Assembly: GCA_018524725.1 (NCBI GenBank)
Contig: JAEUWP010000483.1
Coordinates: 62,001 to 126,000, forward strand
DNA length: 64,000 nucleotides
DNA from: Podaxis mareebaensis
Lineage: Eukaryota; Basidiomycota; Agaricomycetes; Agaricales; Agaricaceae
Direction: 5' to 3'
The notes beneath the pieces were generated by a model. That model was not told where the DNA came from and made no database searches. It saw nothing but the letters and a program-made list of their open reading frames with translations. Each line of letters starts with the position of its first letter. Position 1 is the first letter of the stretch. Both the position numbers and the translations under genes were made by a program. Shown here in pieces: positions 26,872 to 63,944 of the stretch.

Positions 26872-27224
26872 TATGGTGCAAGAGGCTTAGTCACCACTAG
26901 TTTTGGACAATGACAATGGCAGTTCAGGATGACATGATTTTTCTTGGTCCTCTTGCCAAAACACTCAGATTTGTAACCTGAACAAAACCCTAAGACAGAA
27001 TTTTCAGAAAGTCAAAACTGACAGAGCTATAATTTCAGACTATTTTGAAATTTGCCATACTACCATATATAGATGTATATACCTAAAATGGAAGGCCCCT
27101 AACTAATCCATTTGTCCACCCATCTTTTCAGAAATATGACAGTGTGATGCAAACTTGCATGAACTGAAATCATGGACTGTCTTTGAGCTGACTTGGCATC
27201 CAGGCCACTACCATCATCTGTATT

Positions 27225-27650
27225 CACTGGGCTGGTGAGTCAATAAGACATTGGGACTATTGAATAATTACTTAATATATATCATAAACTTGATCTGAGT
27301 AAGCCACCTGTATTATCAAAAAGTTATTGTGAGAAAACATTTGATAAGTCAGGTGGGATATTGTTTCACAAATCTGAGAATATTGAATTAAAATTTCATA
27401 AAATAGTTATAAGATCCAGCTTTGTTATCCCATGTGTTTTATCAAGACATTTTTAAAATCAAGAACTCATTAATTATTTAGTAAACCCACTGTCAGATCA
27501 TGTACTTATCATGAATTTATTGTAAACCATGGATTTCAATAAATGTTGGTTTAAGTAACATAATAGCTTTGATGAGCCAGCTGGTTTATTGAAATCTTAT
27601 CATGACACTGAGTCACACCATATTTACAATACATGGAAAAAAACATAACA
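27225..27650. repeat. AT-rich subterminal block, left
   Basis: About 400 bp of AT-rich DNA some 350 bp inside the left terminus, matching 63,205-63,627 inverted better than most of the arm. It contains several variants of an AGCTGG motif next to TTA or TAA (GAGCCAGCTGGTTTATTG near 27575; GATCCAGCTTTGTTA near 27413; AAGCCACCTGTATTATC near 27300). Dispersed subterminal motifs are where CACTA-type transposases bind, so this is a candidate binding region. Confidence 0.6.
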
Positions 27651-30600
27651 GGGGATATTGGACAAAGTTTTGACAGAACAAGTACCACAGCTGAAAATGA
27701 GTATATAAGGACTGACTGATTCCAGAGTTGTGGGTATTTGAAGACAGCTCTTTGCAATGAATTAGATATTCTATAAGAATGATACAGATTCTTGGCAGAT
27801 TATGGAGGATTGTGTGAGATTTAAATGTATACAGCAAGTTGAGAGAAAATCATACTTGAACCATAGATTCACCAAATGGACCCCCCGGTGCTGGGAGGCA
27901 ATGCATAACTGTGGCAACTCGAAATGATCAAGTGATACACAAAGCCTCAATATGCAGGTAGATAAAACCTGAGATATGAGTGTTTGATAGCATTGTGAGT
28001 GATGTGTTAAGTGCAAACAGCCGCGACTTACAGATTTGAATGGTTCCATTTGCGCTTCTCCCATGGTGTGTCGATGCAGCTGGCAGATCCCTTCATCTAT
28101 GATGCTTATACTGAATTTACAGTCGGTTTTGACAATACACAGGCACAGGGGTCGCTATGGTGTGCCCTGATCTCCTGCCAATCTCAAGAACATCCAATGA
28201 CTCTCCAGAAAGGTCAAGGTCTTCAATTATACGAGTCATGCATCGGGGGTTAGTCCAAGTGAGTGATGGGTTTGGGGCTTCCAATAAGAGGTAACAACCC
28301 CTTGCTCTCAGGATTTTCCTTAAAGCAGGGTGTGAGTGGGGTGGAAAACGGCAGACCGAAGCAGAAGATGAGAGTTTGGGCTTAGGAAGCTGGGATAAGG
28401 CTTGCATTGGAGCTCCAGGGTTGAGGAAAGGCTGTGGCTAGTGGTAGTGGTGGATTGGGTGAAAGATGGTGGGACGATAGTGGGACAATGGAAGATCGGT
28501 GATGTTGGCTACTGAAAGAGCCAAAGAGTGGAGAAGCAACTTCAGTTGAGTTCGAACTCGGCATGCAGGTGAGAAACACAGCTGCATTGGCCCCAGAGGT
28601 CGCTCAATGTGGCTATGGGCCACTCAGCTGATTTCAGATCCTTGACCATCGCTCCAGCCTCTGTCGCAGTAAGTGGACTGGATTCACAGCCTTGATCGGT
28701 TAGGATACTACCAGTCAACATACCAATTCAGTAAAACACTGGACTCGGATATTCTATGGGAATGGAACGGATTCTTTGACAGATCCTAAGGGATTATATG
28801 GAATCAAAAGGATATGGTGAGCAGGGAGAAAGTCCCACCCACTGTCCATTGTTTCTTGACTGATTCTAGGGAATTATGTGAAGTCAAATGGATATGGGTT
28901 GGGATGGAAATGTAGAGTTGAGGCCGGGATGTCGTGTGGAGGTGACAGCGGTTAGATTTCTATTGATGGGGTGGGGAGCAGGCCATCAGTGAAAGTGTCC
29001 AGATCACTAGAGACAGGAAGTAGAACATGAGCAATGACCGTTGAAGCAAGACATACATATACTTATCAATATTCCGACCTCCTTCTGTGTGCTGTTTCAT
29101 GCAAGATTGAGATTGATACACTCATATGTTCTATTCCATTTCTCCCTCTATTTCGGTCATCCTTTTCGTATCCCACCTTTGATTTTCTTGATCTTCTCCA
29201 CACTCTTCACACTCTTCATGTTTTTTCCTGCTCTCTGCCCTTTTTCTCTTCTTTCCTCTCTGTATTTCCCTCAATCACTGCATCAACCACACACGAAATG
29301 AAGGTGAAGTCCAAGAATTCCACCTGAATGTTCTTATTCCTCCACTTTCTACCACAACTCAGCCATATATCGGCAGGTTTTCCATTCCGTCCTGGGATAT
29401 GCATGGTCGCAACGACTTCTTGATGATTCCGGATCACTTTCAGAGTCGAGTGACAGAATCAAAAACTTGGTGATTTATGGGATGTATTACTGCCAACATG
29501 GAATGGATAAACATCTTTCATAATCTGATGTCAACTTACATGACACCAAAAGTAGTGTTTCTTTGAGCATCGGGGATCTTCCATTCAATGATAGGCCAGC
29601 AGAACTCCACACCCTTTTCTATTTCAACGAGTAAAGTGTCAGTGATAAGCTCCCTTTTGAGCTGGGAGCTGTTGTGGACTCAGAGAGGGAATGGGATTTT
29701 CAGGTGGTGCTTGGTGCTGGTAGGATGCGAGGTCTTATGAGCGTTAGCCAATGCATTGAAGTGAATTGCAAAGGTAATGCACAGAATTGGGTTGTGCAGA
29801 ACTATTCACTTTTTCAAGCATTATGCGCCATCGGACTGAATCCCTGTCACTTGTGCTATGAAGACAGCAGAAAAACCAAGTCCTCCACATCATGATGAAT
29901 GATGTTTGTGGTCAAGTGGAAGAGACAGTGACTGAAGGCTTACAAGTCTGAGGTCTTCCATAATGGGCTTCTCCCGTTGTTGACCATGTGCCTGCTGAAA
30001 TTTCATCTCTCTATCCACCGGCAATCAACCAACATCCACATTCACCAGTCAGACCATAGCACGAAGTATGTATTGAGGTGGGGCAGCAATGCTGGCAGGG
30101 GAAGGTTGGAAGTCTTCAGGTCATTGGCTGCGATTGGGAATGCGAGTGCGATTGTGGATAGTTTGTGCGTCCTGGACTCATAATGCAACAACAATACAAA
30201 TCATTGTCATTGTGAGTGGGAGAGCAGCTGTGAAGTAGTGACAGACCTAGAGTAGGGTTGGAGTCATTCTTAGATGTTCATACTGAATGTGGTCTGCACG
30301 TTGTTGGGTTGAATATGTAAGTTTCCTATGTCTCTTTCACCATGAGCTCTTTAGCACTTTTACTCTGATATTTGGTGAAATACCTCTCACTGTCAAGGGC
30401 GGGTATGACGTATCCAAGGCAAATTTGGACTGCTTGCAGAAACCTTTGAGGGAGGTATAGTGTAGAGGTGGACATGGATGCAGTGGGGCTCTGGTGTAAA
30501 GTCTAGGTCATTATCTTCTAAGATTTCAGATTCCTACATGATATATATTGATCGACAATTGATGACTATTCAAGGGGCAGCTCCCCAGAGCACATATGTG

Positions 30601-30944
30601 ATTATACATCATCTCTAAGCTCTCGTCCTAGGCATATAGTGGATACCACAGCAGATTCAGAAATGTGAGCATAGCATCCTTAGATCATGGGAAGACTTGG
30701 GACCAGTAGACAGACCGACCAGTAAGCTGGAAACGGCCGTGCAGTTCTTGAGCCATGCTAGGGCTTAACTTGTGGGGTGCATGGTAAGAGACAATTGTGT
30801 ACCCTTTTCTGGAATCACAGATCATGTAGAGGGAGAGGATGTTGAAGAACAGGATTTTCTTACCCAGAAGAGGGTGTCATGAGAAAGAATATATGTATGG
30901 AAGAGATGCATGCACTAGACTCCAGCCATAGAAACTCATCGGTC

Positions 30945-32060
30945 TTCATGAGTCAGCTTGGGCAGATGAGATGCAGTCGATCTGCGGGTTCGACTGCAAC
31001 TCGGGAACTTTGACGTAAACAGACTCACTGAGGTTTTGAAGGTTTCGCCTATGCTGTGCATCTGGAGGAGTGAAGAGGAGTAGGTGAGTAGTACCTCCAT
31101 AAGCGCCGTATCCGTGTCTACAACACTCGCTGAACACAGAATTCCAAGGTCAAAGAAGGGTGAATGTGCACCTTCGAACCTCATATTCAACATTCTTTCA
31201 ATGTAAATCCTCTTATCCTCAAAGCCCTGTCATTGAAACTCTGCCCAGGTATTGTTGATCATCTTACCCGATCTCGTTAGCAGACCTGGGCAGTTTTGTG
31301 TATAGAAGGTTGAGCAAGATGCTTGGACTTGTATGCACTGTAAGACCAAGCCAACATCAGCGTCACAGTCTCCACCAAGCAGCAAGTGCAAGCCCATAAT
31401 GGACAGGATAGAAATATACCCGTGGATCAAGATCGTCTTGATACCCAACAGATTCGCAATATCACAAGCATGTTGGCCACCCACACAGCCAAAACTCACT
31501 GGTATGAAAAATGATTCACAACAACACCTGATGATAGGGATGAAGGGGTACACACATGTACTTAGATGTCACATACCCCTTCGCCTCTGTCAATGCCTGT
31601 ACTGGCCAATGCACCATCTTGTTTGCGACCTTGAAGAACCTGTATCACGTGACCCAGAAGTAGGAATTGTCAATCAATGTTTCATACCACAACCACGATG
31701 GAAAGCCAACATTCCCTGAAAGAGGTGGACTTACCCATAAATAATCCCATCCACCTCAACCTCTTGTGGTTCACATTAATCTCCTCTGCAACCTTTTCAG
31801 ATAGTACCCTTGATGCATCCACACCCAATGGTTCTTTCTCCAATTTGCCAAAAATCCTGGGGAAGTAGTCCAGTCCAAGACAGGCGAGCATCCAGTACCT
31901 GTCAGTCACCCCCAGAGGACCTCCTTTCCTGTAACACATAACACAAGATATTGTCAGTATACTGACACAGTATATCATATAGTTGTGGAAGAGAGGAAGA
32001 GGACTTACCGATAACATGCGGGCCCAAGCTGCGCCTGTACTCTCAAGGCCAGTGGGAAAC
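30945..32060 (-). pseudogene. 5-oxoprolinase gene fragment, introns retained
   Basis: Minus-strand pieces follow the order of ATP-dependent 5-oxoprolinase (gamma-glutamyl cycle): STGAAWARMLSVSP-like start near 32,040, then after an intron CYRKGGPLGVTDRYW, DYFPRIFGKLEKEPLGVDAS and VAEEINVNH; then FFKVANKMVHWPVQALTEAK near 31,620; then SFGCVGGQHACDIANLLGIK near 31,470 and HGYISILSIMGLHL; and MLNMRFEG followed by DTDTALM near 31,190-31,100. Intron-like gaps lie between pieces, so the fragment derives from genomic DNA. Both gene ends are missing and frames are broken. It lies inside the left arm of the giant element and has no counterpart in the right arm. Confidence 0.85.
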
Positions 32061-33829
32061 AATACACTGCAGAAGGTTGGGGAGGATGCACCGCCTGCAG
32101 TGACAGTGTTAATGTCAGCTGCGGTGATTGAATCATCACACTGCTGTGGTTGTCCCATATCTCAGATGCAGCCTGGGGCCCTGAGTACATAGCTGCTGGT
32201 TCACCAATGAAAGAATTCATTTGAATTGTCTGATCACCAGATGATGATTCTGTTGACAATGGAGAGTAGCTCAGCTGTGGATTGGCAGGACTGGGGCTCT
32301 GGCTGAGGGCATCGGCATATGTGATGGGAGGAACCGGGATGGATGCAAGTGTAGGTAGTAGCTCCTACCAATCGCTGCGAGTGAATATCACATTGATTTA
32401 CCTGCAGGATTCTGTATTGTGATAACCCAACCCAATCGACAGGGGATGTTGCAGCAAATGCTTGAATGGGCAATGTAGCATGCTGTTAGAGGCTCCAGTG
32501 GGTTTTAGGAGCCACTGCTGGTGGCAGAAAGGCGATTGCATCAATGGAAGAGCAAGAATGTTGTTCTCACTCTGCAATCGGGCAATGATGTGACTATTGG
32601 AAGCACTTCCCGGCTGTGGATCTGCTAGGTTGGGGTGCCTGGACCGTGGTACCAACCATAATTGCCACTCCAGAGCTCTACTGAGAGCATGTTCACAGCA
32701 GCCAATTTCCCTGGCAGAAAGACCTGAGAGTTTAGTCCAGCAATTCCACCCAACAGTATCCCATCAAGGAATCATTCCAACCATGCTTTCAAATCAGAGG
32801 TAAGTGCCATTGTTGACAGTTATCAGGATTGTCATGACTCACCCTGGCAGAACAAAATGTAACACATGTAGAGGGAGAGTTAACCGAAATTGATAAGTTG
32901 AGATAACAATGAACATTTCCTTATATACGTCTGGTATAACAAGTCTAGTATTTTGATGATCCAACCCCTACCCGCAATTGCTCCCAGAACAATTACAGCA
33001 TCAGCCCTAGTATATTGCAATAATGGAAGCTGCCATGGAATGAAACACAATTGCATGGTATGAGCCAGGAGGGGTATGTGCGGGACAGCTGAGGTCATAT
33101 CAGCTCAGTCACGATGGAGAGGAATTTCATCATGGGATGGAGTTTCCAAAGACATGAGAATTAGTTGGAATTCTGGTAGAAGCTGACAGGTGCTGGTCAA
33201 CAAGCAAGGAAGGGGGTCCCTCGGGTGCTAGCTTATTCCGATGGAATGTCCGTAAATTGCCAGGTGGATTCGGGTTCCATGAGAATGAAGTGGACTCCCA
33301 AAGATGCTCAGAGATCTAAGGCCAAATACAGTCAGACATGGACCTGGCATCACCAGTAAGTACCATTTTTGACTTGAGATTCTGGACATCTCACCCCTAC
33401 AAACGTTGGCGGAACAAAGTAGGACTTGCCCTGTAGGGAACGGAACCCAACAACATTCTCTGTCGGGAGTGAGATTAGAACAGAGATTTGAGACTGTTGG
33501 GATACGTACTCTCAACACTGAGACAGTGGGGATCATTGTCATGGCTGAGAATAGATGGTAGGCAGCACTTGTAAAAAATCAGTGTGTGTGCGCAAGACTG
33601 AATGGCCACAGTTCACCAGAATCAGAGGGGCAGAGCATAGAAGTGACAGAAAGGCACCATACATGACTTCTGCAGGGCAGAAAGACATAAAAGGAGAGTA
33701 TAGGAAGGCCAATATAGCTCATTTAAGTGAGGAAAGAAGGCCAAAATGGCTCAGTCCATCCAAGAGACGAAGGCCAGTATGGCCCTTTGTGTCGGGGACC
33801 AAGAGTCGAAAGAACATAATGTGGAGGAT

Positions 33830-33843
33830 GAGGTACACAATAG
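33830..33843. repeat. LINE target-site duplication, left copy
   Basis: GAGGTACACAATAG, identical to 37316-37329. Confidence 0.95.
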
Positions 33844-36800
33844 TCTGACCACCTTCCCCTCCTCACCTCCCTCCCCATTCCCTCTCCTTTCAAACCCTTC
33901 ATCGAAAAGCTTACCATCCCGTGCGACTCCGAAGAGGAAGCCGCGTTCCTCTACTCACTGGGCCTTTGACTCCATACAATACCTCCTAATTTTGACTCTA
34001 GCGATGACGTTCTTTCTTATGCCAACTCCATGTCCCACATCATTTCTCAAGAATGGCACAACAATGCTAAGCTTGTTCGTATATGTGCCAGATCCAAACC
34101 CTGGTGGAACCAACAATGCTCGGCTGCTCTACGGGCTTTCCAATCACATAAATCCAAGTCAAATTGGACCAAATTCCGCCGCACTACTTACCAGGCCAAA
34201 TGTGCATTCTTCAACAAGAAAATCAAGGACATAGCAGAAGAAAATCGTCGTCCCTGGGACCTCATGTCCTGGATCAGCAAACGTAACCTCCCTCCCTCCC
34301 AATCAATCTCATACAAGGGGAAAAGCTGCAATGAACTCGAGGATCTCTGGCATGTGCTGGACTCCTCGTATAATTCCACATCCGATCGACAAGTCAACCT
34401 TAGCACCGTCGAATCACTTGATGCCCACCCTGAATGCCCATGGCTCCCCTTCTCCAGCACCGAACTTTTTGATGCCCTCAACCCCTGCACTAATGCATCT
34501 GCCCCAGGCCCAGACCATCTGTCATGGGCCCACATCAAACACTTGATGTCAGATGACATCTTTAAATCAAACTTCCTTCTCTTCACTTCCAAATGCGTAA
34601 AGTTCTCTACCTGGCTGGAACACTTCAAACACTCCACCTCCATCATCATTCCTAAGCCCAACAAACTGCATTACTCCACCCCGAAAATGTTCCAACCCAT
34701 TGTCCTCCTCAACACTCTCGGTAAGTTGATCGAGAAAATGATCTCTGCCAGGATGCAGTTCGAAGCGTCCCAACACAACCTAGTCCATCCCCTTCAATTT
34801 GGGGGTATCATTCAGCGTTCCACTGAAGACGCTGGTGTCTATGTTACTCATCTTGTCTGCACAGGTTGGAAACACAAGCTCAAAACAAGCGTCATTGCAT
34901 TCGATGTGGCGCAATTTTTCCCATCCACTAACCACTCCATCCTAATTGCCACCCTTCGTCGCCAAGGTTTCAACTCAAATCTTGTCTCTTTCTTTTCTGA
35001 TTATTTGAAGAATTGTTTCACCACATATTCCTGGAATAATCACCTATCCCCAAAATTCACCGCTTCTGTTGGCATAGGCCAAGGTTCTGCCCTTTCTCCT
35101 ATCCTCACTTCTCTCACCCTCTCCCCTTTTATGTACAAGTTTTCCAATGACCCTCGCTGTAAAATAGTATCTTTCGTTGATGACAGACTTATCATTGTTC
35201 AGTCAGAATCATTTACTACTAATTGTTGCCTTCTTTCACAGATCTACAAAAACTGTGAAGAATACCTTAACCGCCTTGGCTTTGTTCTCGAAGGAGACAA
35301 AACCGAAGCATTCCATTTTTCCAATTGACCCTCCCACGATCCCAATCCCCCCGTCATCATTGACGACTCTTTCACTATCCATCCCAAACCCTTCCTCCGA
35401 TATCTAGGCTTCTGGTTTGACAGAAGTCTCTCTTTCAAGGAACACATCCACTTTTATTCCACAAAAGTGCTCTCCACTGTCTGCTGCATGCGCATGCTTG
35501 GCAACTCCATCTGTGGCCTCTCTCCTTTACACAAACGGCTTCTATATCGATCCTGCATCGTCCCTATCACAATCTATGGATTCCATCTATGGTTCAACTG
35601 TAACGTCAAATATCATGGTCTTATCAAATTTTTACAACACATGCAGCGCCAAGTGGCTCTCTGGATTATGGGTGCATTCTGCACCACTCCCTCTGGTGGG
35701 GTTGAAGCCATTGCTGGTCTCATCCCTATCCAGCTTCATCTTTTCAAACTCGCCAAGCGATGCTCACTCTGATTCCACACCCTTCCCCCTTCCCACCCCC
35801 TCAAAATCCTCACCCGCGATGTCGACCCCCTAGATGCGCACCATACCAAACAGCACTCGACAGCACTTGATTTCGTCTCTGATGTTCAGCTGGTCACAGA
35901 CCGGTTCCAGTGTCTCCACCCCAGCGCCAAACCTGGCCAGCATCTGCTGGACTTGTTTAGTGATCAGATCAAATTCATCGAATGCCCTGACCCTTCGAAA
36001 GAAGGTGCCATGGCACTTCATATCGCCAATGCCTCCCATGCTCGAGACTCTTCCTTTTCCTCCCCTGTATCTCTTTTAGTAGCTACTGATGGTTCCGTTC
36101 CCACCAATCCCTCCCTATCTGCCACTTCTGCCTTCCTCATTTTCAATTCTTCTGAAACTGATATTCTATCTTCCGCCGTTCACCCTTGTGGTGAAGTGAC
36201 TTCCTCTGACTCTGAATCCTATGCTCTCCGTCTCGGTTTATTCTCTTCTATTTCTCTCGCCAAAGCTCTCAATGCCTCTTCGATTGTAGTTTTCACAGAC
36301 TCCATTTCCTCTGCTAAACTTTTATTTTCGTATAGGCCCCATAGTGCTCATCCGGACTCCATCATGGTCACTCCCCTTCTTCACTCCTGGCTTTCCTCCT
36401 CCCCCCTCAACCACGTCCACTTCTGGTCTATCCCCTCATCCACTAATTGGTCTATCCACCACAAGGCACACATCCTCGCAAAATCACTATGCCTTCCCAA
36501 CCTGCGTCATCAACCCATTCGCACTTCTCTCGGATTTGTTCGCAACCACTACACACAAAAGTGCCTATCCTTATGGCAACAAAAAATGAATGATCCGTCA
36601 TACTGCAGTCACAACTGGCTCCCTCTACTCAACCCCACATCGCAGCCCCTCCAACCCAAGTATGCCAAAGGTGGTACTTGGCTCAACTCGCCCCTTGGAA
36701 AGAACGCCCAGCTATGCGCACGCTTCACGTGTTGTGTCACCAATCATGCGTCCATTGGTGCCTTCCGACAGTGTTTCTTCCCTGGGCGCCACATCACCTC

Positions 36801-37041
36801 CTGCCCTTGCGGTGAGCCGCTTGAAACTCGCGACCACATTCTTGACGACTGCCCACGCTTCCGATACCCAGTAGGAGACCGTGACAGTTTCTATTGGATC
36901 ATCCAATTTCTAGACCAAAACCCCGTGGTGTTTTCCTTCACTGACCAGATTCAAGGACCAATCACTCAAGAGGAGTTTGCCACCCACCGCCTCAACAGAA
37001 GAGAGCGACTTGCAAGAAACAGAGTACCAGACGTTCACTAG
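33844..37041 (+). pseudogene. LINE ORF2: reverse transcriptase and RNase H
   Basis: One frame from 33,844 to the stop at 37,039-37,041, interrupted only by TGA at 33,967, 35,326 and 35,770. It starts with the end of an AP-endonuclease domain (SDHLPLLTSLPI). The reverse transcriptase has motif A (IAFDVAQFFPS), motif B (GIGQGSALSPIL) and motif C (SFVDDRLI) with both catalytic Asp residues present. RNase H follows with VATDGS, SESYAL and VFTDSISS, and the C-terminus has a Cys/His knuckle (CPCGEPLETRDHILDDC). The catalytic centres look intact, so loss of function here comes from truncation and three stops. Confidence 0.95.
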
Positions 37042-37315
37042 AGACCTCTCCTCCATCATCTGTTACCATAGCTAGCTCCACCGCTTCCTTTCTTACCATT
37101 CCATCCAATCTCATTTTCGTCTTGATAAGTTAGTTTCACTCTCTTCTCGTTTCAATTTTCCTGCGTAGTTCATATACTCTCGAATCTCATCTCCTCTAGT
37201 CTTTTTCTTTTCTTCTCTTTTATCTAGTTTCGGTATTGGGACTGCTATCGTGCACCCATTTGTAGTAGCTAGTCTATTGCAATAAACGTCAATTTAAAAA
37301 AAAAAAAAAAAAAAA
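33844..37315 (+). mobile_element. 5'-truncated LINE with poly(A) tail
   Basis: A non-LTR retrotransposon begins inside the endonuclease domain (SDHLP motif) and ends in a run of about 20 A (37,296-37,315). Perfect 14-bp target-site duplications flank it. The right arm of the giant element shows the matching site without the insertion (near 56,275), which confirms both the boundaries and the order of events: arms first, LINE second. Confidence 0.96.
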
Positions 37316-37329
37316 GAGGTACACAATAG
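37316..37329. repeat. LINE target-site duplication, right copy
   Basis: GAGGTACACAATAG directly after the poly(A) tail. Confidence 0.95.
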
Positions 37330-37599
37330 AGTGCGATCTGTTCAGTGAGCTAGAGAGAGATCTCTGCTTCATGGCTGTCACTTGCAGAGATGCAGGATGA
37401 CAACAGTGGCGAGAGGTTTGTTGTGGATGATAAGAGACAACTCGCTTGGGCAGGAAACATGGAAAGTCCTGAGTGGCTCATTCCATGGTGGATAGAAGGA
37501 CCAAGATGGCTCTTCTACATTCATGGCACACACAGATGGCAAAGAATGCACAATCTGGTCGTATTGACGAGAGGGAGACATGGGGAAGGTGTAAGGGTC

Positions 37600-38936: not shown

Positions 38937-39262
38937 GGAATAACTAGAATGGAGGAGGGGAAGGAGTGGGGAGGGAACAGGCAAAGGCTAGTAGAAGAGC
39001 TCGTGAGGAAGCATCTCACGTGCTTGATTCATATCTATAATGTGCGAGTTTGACAAACAATTATCATTTATGGGCATTACGAGACATCCTGAGATACTAC
39101 AATAGATCTTTGGTTGTTTTCTATACCTTAATTATGTGCTCAGAATGCAAAGGTCGTGCATTGCTTGATGTCCTGAGATTAGACTTGGAGTGCATTACGT
39201 CAGTCAGTACATAAGGTGGCAGGCAGCAATTGTAGCTCGCACCAAAATTATGCCTACAATAC

Positions 39263-51692: not shown

Positions 51693-54600
51693 ATGTATCA
51701 TATATACTTCTGTGTATGCCTCAACATCTTTCCCTGTTTCCATTGTTATCCAATGTCAGAAATATCCACACCTGTACTCCCCGAATCCACCAGACGCTTC
51801 CTGCTACAATGGATTGAGGAAACAGAACAGCGCCTATCACGGCACAATGCTGGTTCACTGTTCACAACTTCCTCTTTCAGATTCTTGGACCTGCCTGCAA
51901 GCCACTCCTTGATGGACTCTTTTATTTCACCTGATGTTCTCCTACTCGATGCCAGATCACCGAATAATACTTTGGTGCTAAGCCACAAAAACTGGTTGAA
52001 GGAGCATGAAGAAGTCGCATCTTCCTACATGGCCAAATATGCCAATCAGAGTGAACTTGCACCACAATTGAATTCACTTCTGTCCAGTCTACGGACAGAT
52101 ATCAGCTGTATTGATGATATGAAACACAAGGAATGGCAGCAGCAGAAGGTGCTCATGGAGGAGAAAAACCAAGTTGACCCAGGTAAGCTGATGATATTTT
52201 ATTAGTTGGTTCCACCCTAATGCATATGTTCTGAAGGAATATACATGACATCCCCGTTTGCTACCATGGAACCATCAGCTGTTATCATTTATATTGTCCT
52301 CCTCTGCCTCTACCTGATTTCTGGTGTCTCGCAAGATCACTGTTCCTTCTATCTCACTGCACTCTCCCTTCAATGCAATCTTCCCCCTGAAGCATCCGAG
52401 GAACGTGCCCCTTTACCAGCCCTCGTCACACTCCTGACAACAATTGAAACGCTACTTCTCTGTTCGAAAATTAAGCCCAAATCAAAATCCTATGTATGTT
52501 GTCCACATTGTTTTTGCCTTTATGATCTGGATGGACCTTGCCCAGACACTTGTGACTTTACTGAATTGCCTGGTGGAAGCGAGTGTGGGATGCAGTTGCA
52601 GATGAAGAGCAGTTTGCCATTGCGCAAGTATGTCACCCATGATTTCAAAGATTGGCTAGCAAGGTTGTATGCGCATCCCGGGATGGAGGACCTTCTCGAT
52701 CGCAGGTTTATGATGTCATCAAAGCCAGGGACCATGGAAGATATATGGGATGCACCCATCCTTAGAGAATTTCGTGGGCTGGATGGTGATATATTCCTGT
52801 GTGACAAAGGGACTGAAGGCCACTTGATTTTCAGTATCAACATGGATGGCTTTAATCCCTATGGGAACAAGCAGTCAGGAAAGCAGGTCAGCGTTGGTGC
52901 AATTTACATGACCTGTCTCAATCTTCCTCATGACATCTGAAACTGCCCCAAGAATGTGTTTCTTTTTGGTGTCATCCCTGGGCCCAAAGAACCTTCAGTC
53001 ACACAAATTAATCATCTCCTTGTTCCACTTGTTGACCTCCTTTTGGAGCTTTGGGATATTGGTATTTACCTTTGATGAATGCCATGATATTCTTCAGGCC
53101 GGAGAGTTACTGGTGCCATGATACCACTGGTCTGTGACCTGATTGCTTCCAAGAAGATGGCTGGGTTTGGAAGTGCATGGTCCAAGAACTTTTGTTCACA
53201 CTGTTATCTGAATCTCAACAACATCGCAAACCTTGATTTTTGATCTTGGAAATGCTGTATGCAATGTCTACATCGTGAGATGGCAGAGGCATGGAGAACA
53301 GCGAAGACGAAGGATGAGCAGGAGGAGATCTTCAACCAGCATGGATTGCAATGGTTGGAACTTCTGCAATTGCCGTATTGGGACCCAACTTCCTATGTTG
53401 ACATTGACTCGATGCACTGCTTCTACCTGGGCCTGTTCCATCGTCATGCGATCAACATCTGGGGGATGGATGTAGGCATGGAGGATGGGGAGGGAGCAAC
53501 ATACCAGAGGCTCAGTGAGGCTCCTACTGGCTGGGAACTCCACAAAGCTTTGACAGCCTTCTCAGATGGCGACTTCAACAAATTCAACAATTTCCATTGG
53601 CATGTTGTGGCCCACATATGCGCATTATTTGGTCTTCACTTTGGTAGAACCAAATCAACCTTGATATCAAATCTCTGCACAGTGAGTCCTACCAACCTTG
53701 CTGGTTCTCACACCACTTGCTGAAACTGCCCAGTATAGAGCTTTGCTTCCTCCTGAGCATGAAGCTTTACATTACCAATCAAAGAATGAAGAACTGTGGG
53801 ACAAAGAATCAGAATCAACCAAAGTGCACACTTCGCCTTCACATGTAAGTTCAGCGGTGATTTTTCTCATTCCTGTTGCTGAGAGACCATAGGCGCCAAT
53901 GACTGCCACCTCTGACAATCAGGTGCCAGGGGATCATCCTTCCGCTGCTTCATTGAAGACCAAACAACATCTGACAGACAAGGACATCACATTCTGGTGG
54001 TTACATGCACCGAAATCGAAGTGGTCAAGCTTCACTGTGGACAATTTGAAGAGAGTCCTTCAGCTCAAGAACCCATCTGCTATTATTGAGGTGGGGACAA
54101 AGGCCTCATTGATCTGAAAAATACAAGATTCGGTAAGTGTTCTGAAATCTGTTCCTACTCAACTATGACTAACTGCTCACCAGTGGAAAAGAGAAGGCAT
54201 TATTGACGAATCTGAAACAGTGAAAGATCCTGAAATGAGGAGGCAGTCGAGGAAGCATGGAACAGTCTCACAAACATCAGCTATTCCCCAAGAGGGGAGT
54301 CTGGTCTGGATGGCTTTGACAACTGACCCAACCCAGCATGAGTTTTGGGTGATGTCTGAACTTGTCCCGGTTGAGAAACCTCAACCATCCAAAGTGCGTT
54401 CCACTTCCAGCATTGCTACAACCTGCTGACATATGATCTCAGCCAGACCGAAATGTCAATACACCTCCTAAGGCTCGCAAGTGGCCAAAGACTTGCATGC
54501 TTGGGTGTCAGATGATACCCGAAATCCGGAAAGACATGTCACGTCTATCACTTCCATTATGGGTCTCCAAAGGTCCAGTGCACCCTGGTCAGGCCAAAGG

Positions 54601-55782
54601 AGGGAAACTGCATGCAGATCAGTGGCGATCATTCTTCATGATCAATCTCCCTATCACTCTTACTCACTTATGGGGCACTGAACCACAGAACAGTTGGAAA
54701 GTGAGAATGCTGGAGAATTTTCTATATTTAGTCAGTGCAGTGAAGGTGGCATCCAAGCGCACCATTACAGAGGAAGATATCTTGTTGTATGAGGCTCATA
54801 TGCACAAGTATCTCACATCATTGTGGGAACTATATCCAGGTCTTGAACTTACACCCTATCAACATATTGCCCTTCATTTTGGTGAGTATTTGTGCCAATT
54901 CGGTCCTACACATGGATGGAGATGTTTCGCATTTGAGAGGTACAATTACCTCCTCCAACAATCATCTACCAATCAACTTTTTGGTACACCACGATTTGTC
55001 CCATTGGACGGGAAGAGCTCATATCCTATTTATCAGGTCAAATGGAAAAAACTATGTTTCAGAAGTTTTGCATGCTGCAAAATTTGCGTGCACTGTTCAA
55101 TGTACACCAACTCCCAAAACAATTTCATCCTCTCATTGATGCATATGGCCACTCTTTCAACCATGACATTCGAGGAACCCTCATGAGTGAGGACCTAGTT
55201 GACCGTAATGCCAATGAAGACTGCACATTTCAAGAGACCGTCACACTTCCAAAGGATATTTACCACCTCTTGGAGAAGTGGGTGAAAGCAGACAGTATCC
55301 AAACAACAATCCAACTTGATTCAAAAGCCCTTCTCCGACAAGCTATCTTCGGTGATGTTATGTACAAGATTGTGAAGTGCTCAGCTCTGGATAGTCAAGT
55401 AATGTTCCACACAGATGATGGTGACAGAAACCCATGGGGTGTTGGCTCTGTTACCCATATTTTCAATCAGAGGCATGAGACAGTTGAAGCGGGATGGATT
55501 TCTGAAACATTTTTCGTTGTATCTCCTTATCAGCCTGTGACACTAGATGACAACTGCCATCAGTGGGTGTTTCGACAAAGCAAGCAGTTTTCGTTTGTCC
55601 CTGGTCAACTTTTTCACAAGGAAGTGATGCAGCCAAGGGTGTTATGCCTCAACCAAATCCTTGGGCATTTTGGTTGTGCACTGACAGATTACGAGGATGG
55701 CTCAGAACACGAAATCTTTCAAGCGATTCCACTGCAGAAGGTAAAGTTGTCCTATCTGTTCTTCATTGGAGTTGCATGTTAA
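51693..55782 (+). pseudogene. Tnp2-type (Plavaka/CACTA-like) transposase
   Basis: The pieces follow a Tnp2-family protein: a helical N-terminal part (RRFLLQWIEETEQRLSRHNA), the Cys cluster YVCCPHCFCLYDLDGPCPDTC (C-x2-C with downstream Cys), FKDWLARLYAHPGMEDLLDR, the DDE-core start NMDGFNPYGNKQSGKQVSVG and AIYMTCLNLP, then GAMIPLVCDLIASKKMAGFG, FCSHC, QLPYWDPTSYVDIDSMHCFY and LGLFHRHAINIWGMD. Later pieces are PVHPGQAKGGKLHADQWRSF, FGPTHGWRCFAFERYNYLLQ and, after a 50-nt intron, QMEKTMFQKFCMLQNLRALF. A TGA follows LPHDI, and three TGA codons lie close together near 53,075 (Arg expected at each). Further frame changes occur near 53,230 and 53,700. The enzyme would cut and move the element by its terminal repeats; it is inactive here. 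It ends 0.2 kb before the right arm. Confidence 0.85.
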
Positions 55783-58639
55783 TACCTTGTTCTTAGTGAG
55801 GAATATTCACGTTTCATTAACACATATTCCCGTATAATGTTTTAAGTCATGTAGTTAGTTACCAGTTGTATGTTCGCAACATATTCACATACTACAGGCT
55901 ACAGGCAGAAAGGCAGAAATACATGAGAATCATTCGTGTGCCATCACGTGGGTGCAATGGCCATTTTGAGAATGCATGAGAAATGGAGAATAAATGGACT
56001 TTACACCTTCCCCATGTCGCCCCCTTGTCGGTATGATCAGATTGTGCATCCTTTGCCATCTGTACGTGTTGTGGGATGTGGAAGAGCCATCCTGGTCCTT
56101 CTGCCTGCCATGGAATGATCCACTCAGGACTTTTCATGTTTCCCGCTAAGCGAGGTTTTGAGTCAACTCTTGTCACCTGCGTTGAACCTCCTGCCACCGT
56201 TCACCTCCTGCATCTCCACAAGTGACAGTTGTGAAGCAGGGTGATCTCACTAGCTCTCTGAACAGATTGTGCCGCATTGGATGCCTTATCCCCCATATTA
56301 TGCTCTTTCAGCACTTGACCCTTGACATGAAGAGCCATATTGTCCTTTCTCTTCTCCATGGAATGAGCCACACTGGCCTTTCCATGCTCTCCTTTTGGGT
56401 CTTCCTTCCTTGAAGTACATGGAGAATGGTCCTAAGCCACAATTGTACCTGTCGCTGCTATCGTTCTCATGTTCATGTGGGTCCACTGTTTCTAGTGTCG
56501 AGACCTTGGTGAAGCATATTGGGGACTTTCTGAGTTTGAGGACTTTGTGAGTATACACTACCAATTGTTGTTCAATCATAATCATTGAAGGAGTTGATGT
56601 GTAATGCAGCCAATATAGACGCCCGGTGGAAGTCGTGTACAGTGTTTTTCATCACTTCTACACCTGATGCACTACTGGCGGGCCAGCTATGATGATATTT
56701 ACTCCAAGTTCCATCATCTGCCTGTTGTGGCAATCCTTGTGCTGCTGATTTTTGGTGAATCATAGCCACTCAGTCTCATATGTGCACACTGAATTTTTTT
56801 TTTTCACAAGTGCTGCCCACCCTACTATTCTCTGTCATGGCAACGATCCCCACTATTTTGGTGTTGAGAGTGCATATCCCAATGATCTTAAGTCTCCATT
56901 CTAACTTCACTCCCAATGGACTGAAAAACAACGTTCATCATGGCTTACACTCAGATGGTCCCAACACTAGGACATCGGGCAGATTTCCAGGTTGGGTGAT
57001 GCCAGGTTCATGTCCAGCTGTATTTGGCCTTTGGGAGTCCACCTCGTTCTCGTGGAACTGAATCCACCTGACAATACCTGACAACTCACAGATATTCCAC
57101 CAGAATAACTGGCAGCTGAGGGTTCCCTTCCCTTACTCACTGACTGAGCGCCCATCAGCTTTATCAGAATTCTGACTCATTCTCATGTCTTCAGAAACTC
57201 CACCTCATGACAAAGTTCCTCTCCGTCGTGACAGTGAACGTGCTCTTGATGAAGCTCTGGAGTGGTGATTATGGGCTGGCAGGCACCCCAACCTAGTGGA
57301 TCCGTGATGGCAAGCATTACCCATAGTCACACTGTTGCCCAATTGCAGAGAACAACATTCTCACTTTTCTCTCAACGTGATTGCCTTGCTACCAGTGGTG
57401 GCCCCTAATACCCATTGGACCTTTACATTGCCCGTTGAAGCATTTGCCATGAGGTCTCCCATCGATCAGGTTGGATTATTGCAATGCAGAACTCTGCAGG
57501 TAAATCAGTATGATATTCATTTGCAGCTATTGCTGATCCTTGTGTAGGAGCTACTACCTACATTTGCATCTGCCCCAGTGCCTTCCATCATGTATGCCAA
57601 TGTGCTCAGCCAGAGCACCACAGTCCTGACAATCTGGACTGAGCTACTCTCCATCAATAGAATAATTGTCTGGTGATTGGACAATTCAAATGAGTGCTTT
57701 CATTGATGAACCAAGAAAGCCCAGTTCCCAAGGAAAGTGATTGTATGTGTCCTCAATCCTTTGCTTATTACCATGCAATTTATATACTACCACCTAGATC
57801 TCACCATCACGCTCACTTCATCTGCAGCATCAACGTCCCATTCAACAATCCACCCACAACTGACAACGCCTCCTTCCAATCTGTGAACAACGAAGACATC
57901 AAACCTTAACGTAATGTTGCCATCAAAACCAACGAGTTTCTATGGCTGAAGTCTAGTGCGTGCATCCCTCCCATATATATTTTCTTTCTCATGACACCCT
58001 CTTCCAGGTTGTCTTTCAGGCAGGAAAATCCTGTTCTCTCACATCCTCTCCCTCCACATGACCCCCGATCCTGAGAGAGGGCACATGAATCATCTCTTAC
58101 CATGCGCCCCACAATTTCAGAGCTATCACAACCCATCAACTGTGTGACCTTTCCAGCTTATTGGTTGGTCTGTCCACCGGTTCCGAATCTTCGCATGATT
58201 CAAGGATCCTACATTCACATTTCTGAGTCTGCTGTGATATCCACTATATGCCTAGGATGAGAGTTTAGAGGTGATGTACAATCACATATGTGCTCTGGGG
58301 AGTTGCCCTTTGAATAGTCGTTGATCATTGCCCAATATATCGTGTACGAACCTAAAGTCTTGGAAGATAACAGTCTAGACTTTACACAAGAGTCCATCAT
58401 GTCAGTGTCCACCTTCTGCACTACAGCTCCCTCCTCAAAGATTTCCACAAAACAGTCCAATTTGTCTTGGATGCTCCCTACCTGGCCCTTGACAACATGA
58501 AGTACTTCACGAGGGATCAGAGCAAAATAGTAGAGCTCAAGGTGAAAGAGTACACCATCCTACTTAATGAGATTGAGCTATTGGAAGTGGTATGCAGGAT
58601 GCAGGACAAACGATTGGCAAACGTGATGCACCTGGTATG

Positions 58640-60230
58640 TTTGCCCTTCCTCCATGGTCAGCATCTACTGCTTAAAACCCCTAACTAATTACATTTCGAG
58701 ATGCATCACCTTCTGTCTGGAGTCAGTACTCTCAGTGGTCTTGGTACATCGTTTGAATCAAAGCAGTGCTGAATCCCTTTGCTCAGATGATGACTGGGCA
58801 ACATTCCGCAACCCCATGAGTTCCCCCATGTGTCAGCATACTGCAATGCCAAATGCCATGAAACTGTTTGGTGTTAAGGGCAGCAATCATCCACTGCACC
58901 AGGGCATTATCCATTCTCAAGGTTCCTTTGCAACCCCAAGCGACTGGGGTTAACCCACTCTGTCAGTGTATGCTGACATCAGAGATAACAGGCATGGCTC
59001 TGTTCAATGTGGGAGGTGGTTCTGGGATAGGTATGTGTTGGGTCAATCCTTCTCTGGCACGATATCACCCTCCCAATGACCCAGTTAACAGCCATAACAA
59101 CAAATGGGATATCCACTCCAAGCTTCATCCGCATCCATCTTCATGACACCTTCTATTCCAGCTTTCTCTACTTCGGCTTTCACCACAGCAATGCAGACAG
59201 GGACAAATTTGAATATTCCCCAACATCCCACATCGATGCCTCTACCTTTGGCAGCGCTTCACTACCACTCGTGAAGTCACTCAATAATCGAGCCCACCCC
59301 ACCAGTGGTGAAACTGCCTATGCTGGTGGAGTAGGCTATTGGGCTCAGTTCAGCCCCTGCTGGGTCCACTTAGCAAAATGGGGCAGCGATGAACACGAAT
59401 GCAAGTGGATTCAACTTTGCAAATATGGGTAGTATCATGTCCCCATTTGCGTTTCTGGATGCCAAGCCCAATGCTGCTGGTGCCATAGAGACCTTGCCAC
59501 TGCAACTACTGCAGGATCGACATTCTTGAACTCCTTGTTTGGTGGTTTGACAAATGTAGGGGTGTGAATCCACCGGTGTTGGGAGTGGTGTTGGTACTGG
59601 TGCCTGTGCGCTGTTAAGACCACAGATGATGCAGGATATCAGAATTTGGCATGTTGAGTAAGCAGCAGCAGACAGGATTCAGTGGAAGTTTGGGTGGATT
59701 TGGGGTGTCGAATGCTGGTGCAAATGCTGCTGAAAATGGGGTATTGCAGACACACCAACTACACCCATGCCCACCAATGTGGGTTCACCCAGAGCAACAT
59801 CTCCCACAAGGTTAGGAGCGACAGGGACAGCATCAAGGTTGGGTGTTGGGTTGAGGCCACAGGTTACAGAATGGTGAATCCGTTTAGGGAGTCAATGGCC
59901 ACTGGGATTGCACCTGGTGGTGGTTTGGCACAGGGTGCAGAGTGTCCCGCCATTGCCAACTGTTCTTGGGAGTGCGAATATGTTTGGCACAATGCCATTT
60001 TGCTCATCAGCAATGATGGGGGTGAATGGATTTGGAGCGTCTGGGAAAAGGGTGTGACAGGACAACAACCTGGAGGACAACAGCAGAGCCAAGGAAGTGC
60101 GTCGTTCTATGTGTCCACTCCTTGGGGGTGGTAATCCGTCGTCCATTGGGTATTTGATGCTGGGTTATTGGTGCACCATGTGCAAGATGCTGCGTTCATT
60201 TTTGTTTCCTTCTTTCCCGGTTTTGTCGTA
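58640..60230. other. 1.6-kb segment specific to the right arm
   Basis: Left and right arms match on both sides of this segment (30,255 on the left joins 58,640 and 60,230 on the right), so it is an insertion in the right arm or a deletion from the left. The plus strand has Gly/Asn/Phe/Thr-rich words (GFSGSLGGFGVSNAGANAA, NMFGTM, NGFGAS) and a Pro/Thr linker near 59,750, which might be a captured FG-type gene fragment, but I cannot show a homologue. Confidence 0.5.
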
Positions 60231-62194
60231 TTCAGTATGAGCATCCTAGAAATCAACGATGGCTCCACACCTTCCTTAGGTTAGTCACCACTTCGCAGTT
60301 GCTCTCCCACTCACTGCAATAACAATCTGAATCGTTGCTGCATTACAAGTCCAGGACACATGAACTACCATTGCATGCGACAACCTAAAGACTTCCAACC
60401 TTCCTCGTCAGCATTGTTGCCCTGCCTCAACCCATATAATCTTTGTGCTACATTCCAAGTGGTGTCCGCATGAATGACAGCCATCCGAAAGTCAAGAATG
60501 GTGAACGTGAGTTTTGGTTGGACATTGAGGTTGGATGTTGGTGGATAGAGGGGTGATGTTTCATCAGGCACACAATCAGCAGTGGGTGAAGCCTGTTATG
60601 GAAGACCTCCAACTTGTAAGCCTTCAGTTGCTATCTCTTCCACCTGACCCCAAACAATGTCATTCATCACAGTGTGGAGGACTTCATTCTTTCACTGCAT
60701 TCATAGGGCAAATGACAGGAATTCAGTTCGACGGCGCGTAACTCTTGAGAAATCATGTAGTTCTGTACAACCCAATTCAGTGCGTTCCCTTCAAACTCAT
60801 CTCAATGCGTTGGCTTAATGCTCATAAGACCTCGTATCTTACCAAATACTGCCCAAAGATCCCATTTCCCTCTCTGAGTCCACAACAGCTCCCAGCTCAA
60901 AAGGGAGCTTATCACAGAGACTTTACTTGTTGAGATAGAAAAGGGTGTGGAATTTTGCTGGCCTATTGTCGAATGGAAGATTCCCAATGCCCGAAGGAAC
61001 ATCACCTTTGGTGTCATGTAAGTTAATATTTGATTATAATGGACATTTATCCATTCCAAGTTGGTAGTAATACATCCCACAAATCGCTGAGTTTTTGGTT
61101 CTATCACTCAACTCTGAAAGTGATTCAGAACGGCCAAAAAGTCATTGCGACTATGCATATCCCAGGACAGAATGGAAAACCTGCCGATATATGGCTGAGT
61201 TGTGGCAGAAAGTGGAGGGGCAGGAATGTTCAGGCAGAATTCTTGGACTTCGCCTTCATTTCATGTGCAATTGGTGATGCAGTGGAAAGGAATGTGAGGA
61301 GGAAAGAAGAGAAAAGGGGCGCAGAGGGGAGGAATGTGGAAAGTGTGAAGAAGGTAGAGTAAACAAAGAAAGCTGAAGGCGGGATACCAAAAGGATGACT
61401 GAAAGGAATAACATATAGCATTGTGTCTCAATCTCACTTCAATCCCAATCTTGCGTGAAATAGCACATGGAAAGAGGCTGGAATACTGATGAGTACTTGC
61501 TAAATCAGTGGTCGTTGCTCATTCTCCACTTCCCTTCCCTAGTGGCCTGAATGTTTTCAGTCGACTGCCTGCTTTCCATCCCACTGGTTGGAATCCAACC
61601 ATTGTTGTCTCCAGATGTCATCTTGGCCTCTTGTTTCAACTTGTGGAAAGACCAAACTACATCCTGTGGTCAATCCTGCCATTACGTCTGCTCAAGTGCA
61701 TGGGGTACGATCACCAAATAATTCACCAACTTCAGCTTGTGAGTGTATATATTCACCATACGCAGGATCAATTCCTTGAGTCCTGCTGCCACCATTTCCT
61801 GACAACGTGTATATAGAACTTTAGACCACCTATGTTGTTGGTGTTGAAGAACCTGGAGACCCACTCCACATCTGCCTGATTCAATTCATGTACCCTATGC
61901 TCTTTGGTGATTACCAGCGAGGTTGGAGGTGGGTGCTAGTCATGAGAAACTCATGGATATCCGGCACACAAATGTTGACTCACCATGCCCTTAGGCACCC
62001 ATTTGACAGTGGGTGCATTGATACTCCTACCAACTGGGTGATCGTTGCCCAAATCTGTCTCGTGCTGTACTGATCTGACCACCCCTATCTCTTCCTAAAC
62101 CTCATTCAACCCATTGTTTCCTGCAGACGTCAGGCACCCACTTTTACCATGGTCTTGTACCCATGTTGTAGTGGATGCACGATCGGTGCATGAA

Positions 62195-63170
62195 GACTTA
62201 GCTTTCATGATGGATAATCAGTGAGATTTTCTCCCAACTTCGTATTTGATTTCAGTCCTCAGGATTTTGTCAAAAAATGTTTTATTCTCACAGAATATCC
62301 AAGTCCGTTGCAAACTGTCCCCCTCAAACACTCCCAACACTTTGCTGGACGATGTCAGAGTACCTGCAAAAGCTTTGCATACATTTGGATCAACCCTTGA
62401 GTGATTTGTTATTCAGGGTTCCTGTCGTTATTTACACAGCCTACACTCAACATACAATGATGGTGAGACTGGTAAGTGATGTTGAATCTTGATCAAAGGC
62501 AATTGAATGGACTCACATCACTTTGGATAGTCCATGGCAAAAACGCTTGTGCATTTTCGCCATTCCTCATCAATGGTTATGGGTCGGCAAAACCCTAACC
62601 CAGGCAGAGCTGGAAGGGGGAAGTGTGAGGACTCAGCTTCATGACAATCAGTGAGATTTTCTCCTAACTTGCGAAATCTCATGCAAACCTCAAGGATCTG
62701 CCAAGCATAGAATATTTAAGTCCATTGCAAGGTGCCTTTCTCAAATATTCACAACCTCCAGTGTGGGATGGCTGAGACTTGGTGTTTGTACGCTCATCTT
62801 CAGATCACCTCCCTCTATGAACTCTGAAGAATACATATTCTTCAAGTCTGCTTTGCCTAAACTCTCAGGTCTTCCCATGGGGAAAATTGGTCACTTTACA
62901 GTTGGCAAGACCCCAGTCCAGACACTATGGATTCACAGCGGGGAAGCGTTCCCGATGCATGAAGACTCTGCTTCACAGATAATCAGCAAGATTTTCTCTC
63001 GACTCACCATACACACTTAAAATCTCACACAATCCTCCAGAATCCACCAAGAATCTGTTTCATTCTTAGAGAATATCTGAATCCATCGCAGGGCACCATC
63101 TTCAAATGTTCATGACCTCCAGCATTGGATGGCTGAGATTCTGTGTTTATATGCTCATTTTTTGGTCCTG
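62195..63170. repeat. Three diverged direct repeats in the right arm
   Basis: A unit of about 170 bp starting with CAGTGAGATTTTCTCC or a variant recurs at about 62,219, 62,650 and 62,980, followed each time by AGAATATCCAAGTCC- or AGAATATTTAAGTCC-like words. Inverted partners lie in the left arm near 27,760-27,850 and 28,740-28,830. Confidence 0.65.
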
Positions 63171-63204
63171 GTACCCGTTCATCAAGACTTGTGTTCAATA
63201 TCCT

Positions 63205-63627
63205 GTTGAGTTTTTCTGTGTATTGTAAACATGATGTGACCCAGTGTCACAATTGAATTTCAATAAACCAGCTGGCTTACCAAAGCCATAATGTCGCCTA
63301 AACTAATATTTATTGAGATCTGTGGTTCATGATAAATTCACAATAAGTATTTGATCTGACAGTAGGTTTACTAAAAAGTTAATGAGTTCTTGATTTTAAA
63401 AATGTCTTGATAAAACACATGGGATAACAAAGCTGGATCTTATAGATATTTTATGAAAATTTAATTCAATATTCTCAGAATTATGAAACAGTATCCCACC
63501 TGACTTATCAAATGTTTTCTCACAATAACATTTTGATAATACAGCTGGATTACTTAGTTCAAGTTTATGATATATATTGGGTAATTACTCAATAATCCTG
63601 CTGGCTTACCGACTCACCAGCCCAGTG
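63205..63627. repeat. AT-rich subterminal block, right
   Basis: Inverted partner of 27,225-27,650. Motif variants include AATAAACCAGCTGGCTTACC near 63264, CAAAGCTGGATCTTA near 63430, ACAGCTGGATTAC at 63541 and CCTGCTGGCTTACCG near 63596. Confidence 0.6.
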
Positions 63628-63944
63628 TATTGATGTGATTTATTCCATCTTCCCATGGTGTGCAGATGCCAGGCTCATCAGCATTTGATTGCCGTGCTGT
63701 GGTCAAAGCTTCAACAAGGTCAGGCTTTGAAGCATGTTGAGCTGCTCAAGCAAGGGCGGCTGTAGTTTTTTGCACTTTCAATGCTCGTTTATGAGCTTGT
63801 GAGACATTACAGGTATCAAGGATGTGTATCAAAGGCTAGGAGTAGTACAAAATATATTCTAAAAATCGGAATATTTTTGAAAATTTCTGGACCTGAATCC
63901 ACCATTCGTCCAAAAGTGGTGCTGACTAAGCCTCTTGCACCATA

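What the first reader, a model, noticed from the sequence alone, without database searches (positions are those of the whole stretch)
26874..63942. A 37-kb transposon-like element bounded by identical 20-bp ends and 7-8 kb inverted arms
Seen: the terminus TGGTGCAAGAGGCTTAGTCA occurs at both ends in opposite orientation; arms match collinearly for kilobases; TA flanks both sides; outside the ends one LINE 3' region is split. Known: CACTA-type elements usually have short terminal repeats and lengths of 5-20 kb. Inference: a giant Tnp2-type element with arm-length inverted repeats and a cargo-bearing centre would be an unusual architecture.
Basis: partly seen in the sequence, partly recalled or inferred. 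Interest (0 to 1): 0.92.

Follow-up and report, generated by a model that had tools for sequence, protein, structure and literature searches.

The report
Giant gene-carrying transposon nested in smaller one
A mushroom-type fungal genome carries a roughly 32-kb multi-gene jumping element, sitting inside a much smaller one, whose genes include a nuclear-envelope-type (SUN) protein that appears to have been preserved by selection.

Summary
The 20-bp ends (26874, 63942; TA on both sides) belong to a small element family (A). Five other copies are 558-568 bp long and match only the outermost 334 and 192 bp. The long inverted arms belong to an inner element (B), 27225-63627, with CACTGGGCTGGTGAGTC ends and the 4-bp target duplication TATT. 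Two other copies of B lie elsewhere without A's ends. One, inferred from two contigs, is about 32.2 kb, has matching ACGA duplications and lacks the window's LINE; the other matches at 87-88% in the core. B encodes a Tnp2 (PF02992) transposase, a SUN-domain protein, a coiled-coil-like protein with a C-terminal membrane segment, a WD40 exon and others. Between copies, 10 of 10 segments tested show purifying selection (10 of the 13). B is best called a giant CACTA-like (CMCT-clade) transposon; its 4-bp duplications, size, arms and SUN cargo are unusual. A role at the nuclear envelope is inference only.

The parts
26874..27224 (+). Left part of the small outer element A (first 334 bp shared with its 0.56-kb relatives), starting with the 20-bp end
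63628..63942 (-). Right part of A (last 192 bp shared with its relatives), ending with the inverted 20-bp end
27225..63627 (.). Inner giant element B, 36,403 bp, ends CACTGGGCTGGTGAGTC inverted, flanked by TATT on both sides
27225..37603 (.). Left inverted arm of B (about 7 kb plus the LINE)
55992..63627 (.). Right inverted arm of B
33844..37315 (+). LINE copy (reverse transcriptase RVT_1, poly-A) inserted in the left arm, duplication GAGGTACACAATAG; C276 holds the empty site
30947..32159 (-). Fragment of a hydantoinase-like host gene in the left arm, 78-83% to C389:47453-48840
38005..38748 (-). Gene G1, open frame of unknown function (247 aa)
40020..41057 (-). SUN-domain protein, main exon (modelled protein 375 aa in C276; splice site is my own model)
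41105..41194 (-). SUN-domain protein, first exon (model)
41629..42132 (+). WD40 exon
43465..44535 (+). G3b, open frame in C276 of unknown function (357 aa); 2 in-frame stops in the window copy
46838..48282 (+). Gene K in three modelled exons: helical, coiled-coil-like, C-terminal membrane segment and short tail (448 aa in C276); a 10-bp loss breaks the frame in the window
50533..51551 (+). G6a and G6b, open frames next to the transposase, unknown function
51684..55782 (+). Tnp2-type transposase gene (PF02992 in the C276 copy); five TGA stops in the window at 52938-53243, all CGA in C276

Best explanation
Shown by sequence: a small element A with TGGTGCAAGAGGCTTAGTCA ends inserted at a TA in a LINE 3' end. 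A transposon B, about 32 kb, then inserted into A with a TATT duplication. A LINE copy later landed in B's left arm, and the window copy lost much of its CpG, which put stops in its transposase. B has short exact CACTGGGCTGGTGAGTC ends, roughly 7-kb diverged inverted arms and a 19-kb core with a Tnp2-type transposase and several other selected open frames, among them a SUN-domain protein and a protein with a C-terminal membrane segment. Inferred: the Tnp2 protein binds the CACTG ends and moves the whole unit by cut and paste, with staggered cuts that leave 4-bp duplications; the accessory proteins serve the element rather than being chance passengers, since selection kept them between copies. 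Most likely the SUN protein and the membrane protein K act at the nuclear envelope; that last step is a guess from domain and topology.
For: A: five other copies 558-568 bp share only the outer 334 and 192 bp; TA on both sides in 6 of 6; empty site in 37 of 40 rows. B: arms start at the same inner point in other places; 4-bp duplications at 6 of 7 readable sites; C276 plus C174 give ACGA/ACGA and a LINE-empty site; core 96% (C276) and 87-88% (C285). Transposase PF02992 39.2 bits, cut-off 28.6. SUN domain 45.5 bits, cut-off 22, solved SUN1 structures at 3.1e-12 by profile. Purifying selection in 10 of 10 segments tested without CpG sites; 0 of 20 shifted frames below p 0.05. CpG decay: 644 of 697 window-C276 differences, 609 of them at CpG.
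Against: Copy 2 is joined from two contigs by its duplication and position, with 615 bp unseen between them. The right end of C285 is not held. One of seven sites (C352) lacks identical 4-bp flanks. No other A copy shares the 130-bp interior seen here. No expression or movement data; splice sites are my own models. The nuclear-envelope role rests on one domain match and hydropathy; structure models were too poor to help.
Confidence: 0.93

Rival explanations
1. One single 37-kb transposon bounded by the 20-bp ends; the 0.56-kb A copies would be its internally deleted derivatives.
For: The outer ends are true insertion boundaries and the 0.56-kb units share 334 and 192 bp with the ends.
Against: B occurs on C276/C174 and C285 with its own ends and without A's ends; the A relatives share nothing with B's arms.
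Confidence: 0.03
2. B is a composite: two inverted copies of a smaller arm element that trapped a stretch of host genes between them.
For: Arms are inverted and diverged; arm-like pieces occur elsewhere (C99, C240, C346, C364).
Against: The CACTGGGCTGG motif was found only at the outer ends in the window and C276; three copies share the same core, which includes the transposase and is under selection.
Confidence: 0.06
3. The inverted arms are an assembly artefact.
For: Copies 2 and 3 end at contig ends within the right arm.
Against: The arms are 77-86% alike in their main blocks, too different for a simple collapse; inverted arms occur on C318, on C276 with C174, and on C285; duplications match at both ends of B in the window.
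Confidence: 0.02
4. The non-transposase genes are chance passengers without use to the element; the SUN protein is just a captured host gene.
For: A host hydantoinase-like fragment was captured in the left arm; the host has two other SUN loci.
Against: SUN, K, WD40, G1, G3b and G6 all show synonymous excess between copies; the only two SUN relatives found are in species that also hold close Tnp2 relatives (candidate-limited).
Confidence: 0.2

Closest known systems
Fungal CACTA elements such as CNIRT6 of Cryptococcus neoformans (PMC12810828, passages read)
   Same: CACTG ends, DDE transposase of the CACTA/Mirage/Chapaev group, variable target sites
   Different: CNIRT6 is about 7.5 kb with 24-bp repeats and 3-bp duplications; B is about 32 kb with kilobase arms, 4-bp duplications and several cargo genes
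CMCT clade incl. EnSpm, Plavaka, ESTA (PMC12730594, abstract and passages read)
   Same: 5'-CA..TG-3' ends, duplications of 2-5 bp for the clade, CxxC motif in the transposase, fungal members that carry an extra gene (TET/JBP)
   Different: Cargo here is SUN and others, no TET/JBP match in the frames scanned; EnSpm in that paper makes 3 bp; Plavaka ends are TGT or CATCA
Enlarged En/Spm of the red alga Chondrus crispus, 16-20 kb with 4-5 ORFs (reviewed in PMC6431247, passages read)
   Same: Multi-gene enlarged CACTA elements
   Different: Smaller; SUN cargo and arm-length inverted repeats are not mentioned in the passages seen
Teratorn (PMC6431247, passage read)
   Different: piggyBac-like transposase with a herpesvirus genome; B has a Tnp2-type transposase and no viral Pfam match above cut-off in the frames scanned
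Starship giant fungal elements (recalled; a basidiomycete report seen as passages of PMC13066641)
   Same: Giant fungal mobile element with cargo
   Different: Starships use a tyrosine-recombinase captain; B has a Tnp2-type transposase

Membership tests
CMCT clade (CACTA-Mirage-Chapaev-Transib and kin) | 5'-CA..TG-3' ends | tested here: met
   CACTGGGCTGGTGAGTC at both ends
CMCT clade (CACTA-Mirage-Chapaev-Transib and kin) | Target duplications of 2-5 bp | tested here: met
   Identical 4-bp flanks at 6 of 7 readable sites
CMCT clade (CACTA-Mirage-Chapaev-Transib and kin) | DDE transposase with CxxC and H(3-4)H motifs | tested here: inconclusive
   PF02992 match; D306, C325 and C328 invariant and D209 nearly invariant in 16 aligned proteins; the last acidic residue and the H motif were not assigned
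EnSpm/CACTA proper | 3-bp target duplications | tested here: not met
   Duplications are 4 bp; so not filed as EnSpm proper
EnSpm/CACTA proper | Subterminal arrays of short transposase-binding motifs (recalled from plant elements) | tested here: not met
   No 9- to 14-mer with at least 2 copies in each arm and at least 6 in both; diverged motifs could be missed
Plavaka | TGT..ACA or CATCA..TGATG ends, Plavaka transposase | tested here: not met
   Ends CACTG..CAGTG; Plavaka model 14.5 bits, cut-off 26.3
KDZ | KDZ transposase domain, about 8-bp duplications | tested here: not met
   No KDZ match in the 30 frames scanned; 4-bp duplications
Starship | Tyrosine-recombinase captain gene (recalled) | tested here: inconclusive
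   No such match in the 30 frames scanned, but not every frame of the element was scanned
SUN-domain protein | Sad1/UNC domain above curated cut-off | tested here: met
   45.5 bits, cut-off 22; two SUN1 stretches aligned incl. NWG..TCLY
SUN-domain protein | N-terminal membrane segment, coiled coil, SUN domain at the C-terminus | tested here: inconclusive
   One hydrophobic segment near residues 45-66 in my model; coiled coil not computed; structure model of low confidence
KASH protein (gene K) | Single C-terminal membrane segment with a short tail | tested here: met
   Most hydrophobic window 405-423 of 448, tail of about 19-25 residues largely kept in C285
KASH protein (gene K) | KASH sequence match | tested here: not met
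   Only a sub-threshold coiled-coil match (KASH_CCD 10.5 bits, cut-off 43.3); no homologue; not filed as KASH
KASH protein (gene K) | Binding to a SUN domain | not testable with these tools
   Needs binding assays or complex prediction

The most novel reading that the evidence does not exclude
B belongs to a transposon lineage that carries its own nuclear-envelope bridge: a SUN protein and a tail-anchored coiled-coil partner (K) that work as a pair, tethering the element or moving nuclei in ways that favour its spread in a fungus whose cells hold two nuclei.
Probability: 0.22. Interest if true: 0.88.

Novelty: new variant of a known kind. Interest (0 to 1): 0.66.

Why it matters
If right, a DNA transposon of the CACTA kind can reach about 32 kb, keep several non-transposase genes under selection and include a SUN-domain protein, a class known for linking chromosomes to the cytoskeleton across the nuclear envelope. 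That is a testable case of a mobile element that may use nuclear architecture, and a second enzyme class, beside the tyrosine recombinases of Starships, for giant cargo-bearing fungal elements. A sister copy with little CpG decay makes the gene set readable.

Tried and rejected
Single 37-kb element: rejected because B occurs without A's ends. Misassembly of the arms: judged unlikely. A longer relative of this A copy: its 130-bp interior had no other match in the genome search. Subterminal motif arrays: none found. Rfam: no match at gathering scores. Structure prediction of the SUN protein and of G3b: mean pLDDT 37.2 and 34.3, so no fold search was made. NCBIfam for six frames: nothing above cut-off. 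Homologues of K: none at E 1e-3 or below, none in solved structures. G3b against solved structures: only two chance-level matches. G3c and G5 gave no clear frame preference; they and the last transposase frame were not put into, so one search tested 10 of the 13 segments. The DNA search with the 11-kb right half of the core was not scored by the tool. Paper searches joining SUN with transposons, or CACTA with giant size, inverted repeats or cargo showed no title or abstract reporting a SUN-carrying transposon; these searches cover open-licence PMC papers only and I saw listings plus passages of four papers. Whether the Agaricus bisporus SUN and Tnp2 relatives (P0121, P0002) are neighbours could not be tested; both are listed on a contig of 2,387,012 bases, which random genes would share now and then.
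Full report
What was checked. The 20-base terminus lies at 26874 (+) and 63942 (-), each with TA outside. The host assembly is unnamed: 36.95 Mb in 429 contigs, the window being C318:62001-126000. Named close relatives of its proteins come from Agaricus bisporus, Macrolepiota fuliginosa and Leucocoprinus birnbaumii, so an Agaricaceae-like mushroom is inferred.

Element A. The genome has 12 exact copies of the 20-mer and 0 of the reversed control; up to three mismatches gives 19 against 3. Besides the window's two, eight exact copies form four inverted pairs, one pairs with a three-mismatch partner (C118) and one (C373) has no partner in the list. The five pairs bound units of 558-568 bp; these and the window have TA on both outer sides, 6 of 6. 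They match the window's outermost 334 bp (92-94%) and 192 bp (89-92%), apart from the short inverted repeat itself. The outer flanks joined with one TA align through the junction in 37 of 40 rows returned; the other three are the window's two flanks and C390, which stops short (40 of 105 candidates scored). So A inserted into a repeated LINE 3' end. The A copy on C25 sits in the same kind of LINE end (flanks, compared with the LINE end printed). The A copy here has about 130 bp of interior without another match.

Element B. The arms begin inside A, at 27225 and 63627, with CACTGGGCTGGTGAGTC inverted and TATT on both sides. The 17-mer occurs 16 times exactly; with three mismatches there are 98 matches against 49 for the control, so only rows with 0 or 1 mismatch are used. 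Of seven sites where both ends could be read, six have identical 4-bp flanks: window TATT, copy 2 ACGA, and 512-bp relatives TATA, TACT, AATA and TGTA; C352 (CATA/TACA) does not. The 512-bp relatives share only their outer parts with B, at 74-78%. Lone ends on C25, C60 and C186 and the 149-bp pairs on C37, C59 and C360 were not examined for duplications.

Copies of B. C276 runs from its CACTG end at 26528 to the contig end at 52496 and matches window 27225-56651 at about 96% apart from the LINE. C174:1-5625 matches window 57267-63627 at 96-99% and ends in CAGTG; ACGA precedes C276's end and follows C174's end. Read as one copy, with 615 bp unseen between contigs, this is about 32.2 kb. It has one GAGGTACACAATAG where the window has two around the LINE, and lacks 735 bp present at window 62219-62953. 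C285 runs from 27025 to the contig end at 60260 with its own inverted arms; its core matches the window at 87-88%. C364 has a more diverged right arm (80-88%). By protein search these three places alone have a close transposase; the next best rows are 42% identical or less.

Arms. Left and right arms of copy 2 align over 2,855 columns, 82.5-85.7% identity in the four larger blocks; the window's over 3,039 columns at 77-85%; C285's over 2,164 columns, including 127 bp at 97.6%. Transversion differences are 4.27%, 3.95% and 2.13%. Between lineages the arms differ by 3.1-4.2% in transversions, the core by 1.5%. The arms look like old, mostly non-coding inverted repeats, with local homogenisation in C285. 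The left-arm piece 30947-32159 is a fragment of a hydantoinase-like host gene (PF01968 29.6 bits, cut-off 22.9; 78-83% to C389, with no C285 row).

Decay. Of 697 window-C276 core differences, 644 are T/A in the window where C276 has C/G, 609 of these at CpG in C276; 12 are transversions. CpG observed/expected in the core is 0.36 in the window, 0.85 in C276 and 0.61 in C285. Five in-frame TGA codons in the window's main transposase exon are CGA in C276; C285 shares one. So the two insertions are recent copies of nearly the same sequence, and the window's has decayed at CpG.

Genes. The main transposase exon in C276 (48034-49533) matches PF02992 at 39.2 bits, cut-off 28.6, and 474 proteins at E of 1e-3 or less among 7,998 scored candidates. 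A SUN-domain protein lies on the other strand: Sad1_UNC 45.5 bits, SUN1 chains at 3.1e-12 by profile. Its main exon is an unbroken 369-aa frame in all three copies, and two further SUN loci exist in the host. The candidate-limited protein search gave two relatives, in A. bisporus and M. fuliginosa, species that also hold close Tnp2 relatives. My spliced model has 375 aa with one hydrophobic segment near 45-66. Gene K is modelled at 448 aa with one C-terminal membrane segment and a tail of about 19-25 residues that is largely kept in C285; no relative was found, and in the window a 10-bp loss breaks its frame. A WD40 exon (33.2 bits, cut-off 27) and open frames G1, G3b, G6a and G6b complete the set.

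Selection. Comparing C276 with C285 and leaving out CpG sites, 10 of 10 tested segments show synonymous excess in the annotated frame (one-sided Fisher p from 2.8e-12 to 1.4e-2); 0 of 20 shifted-frame controls fall below 0.05, the lowest being K +1 at 0.069. Nonsynonymous/synonymous rate ratios: transposase 0.16, 0.17 and 0.33, G6 0.16 and 0.14, G3b 0.16, WD40 0.32, G1 0.35, SUN 0.36, K 0.36. One search holds 10 of the 13 segments; of those left out, G5 (0.57) and G3c (0.47) showed no clear frame preference and the last transposase frame gave 0.32. Window against C276 gives no consistent frame preference, as expected for decay.

Mechanism and comparison. The best-supported order is A into a LINE, B into A, a LINE into B. 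B's anatomy fits cut-and-paste transposition by a Tnp2-type enzyme acting on CACTG ends. Its 4-bp duplications differ from the 3 bp of EnSpm but lie in the 2-5 bp range given for the CMCT clade (PMC12730594, abstract and passages). Fungal CACTA elements with CACTG ends are known (CNIRT6, about 7.5 kb, 3-bp duplications; PMC12810828, passages), and enlarged En/Spm of 16-20 kb are reviewed in PMC6431247 (passages). What stands out here is the size, the kilobase inverted arms and the selected cargo with a SUN protein. That SUN and K work together at the nuclear envelope is untested: K has KASH-like topology but no KASH sequence match.

Noticed in passing
window 345-6118: Copia-type LTR retrotransposon: 555-bp direct repeats 96.9% alike with gag, Pol_BBD and RVT_2 domains between.
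   Followed up: partly
window 20000-26800: CpG observed/expected is 0.08, far below the rest of the window: heavily decayed repeat DNA next to A.
   Followed up: no
window 62219-62953: 735 bp present in the window's right arm but absent from the C174 copy; its nature was not determined.
   Followed up: no
C37:52294-52442, C59:26942-27090, C360:46711-46859: 149-bp units bounded by CACTGGGCCGGTGAGTC-type inverted ends, possibly the smallest B relatives.
   Followed up: no
C285:27774-27900 and 60134-60260: 127 bp of opposite arms 97.6% alike while the main arm blocks are 85-88%: perhaps recent conversion between arms.
   Followed up: no
window 50319-50466: 15-bp tandem repeat, about 10 copies, within an acidic low-complexity reading frame upstream of the transposase.
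   Followed up: no
window 9467-10222: Mitochondrial carrier protein gene piece (PF00153, 106.9 bits), an ordinary host gene outside the elements.
   Followed up: no
C373:3257-3600 (L025): A further A-family left end that diverges after 344 bp into an unrelated stretch beginning TGTAAACCCATTGGG; no right end in the 3-mismatch list.
   Followed up: partly
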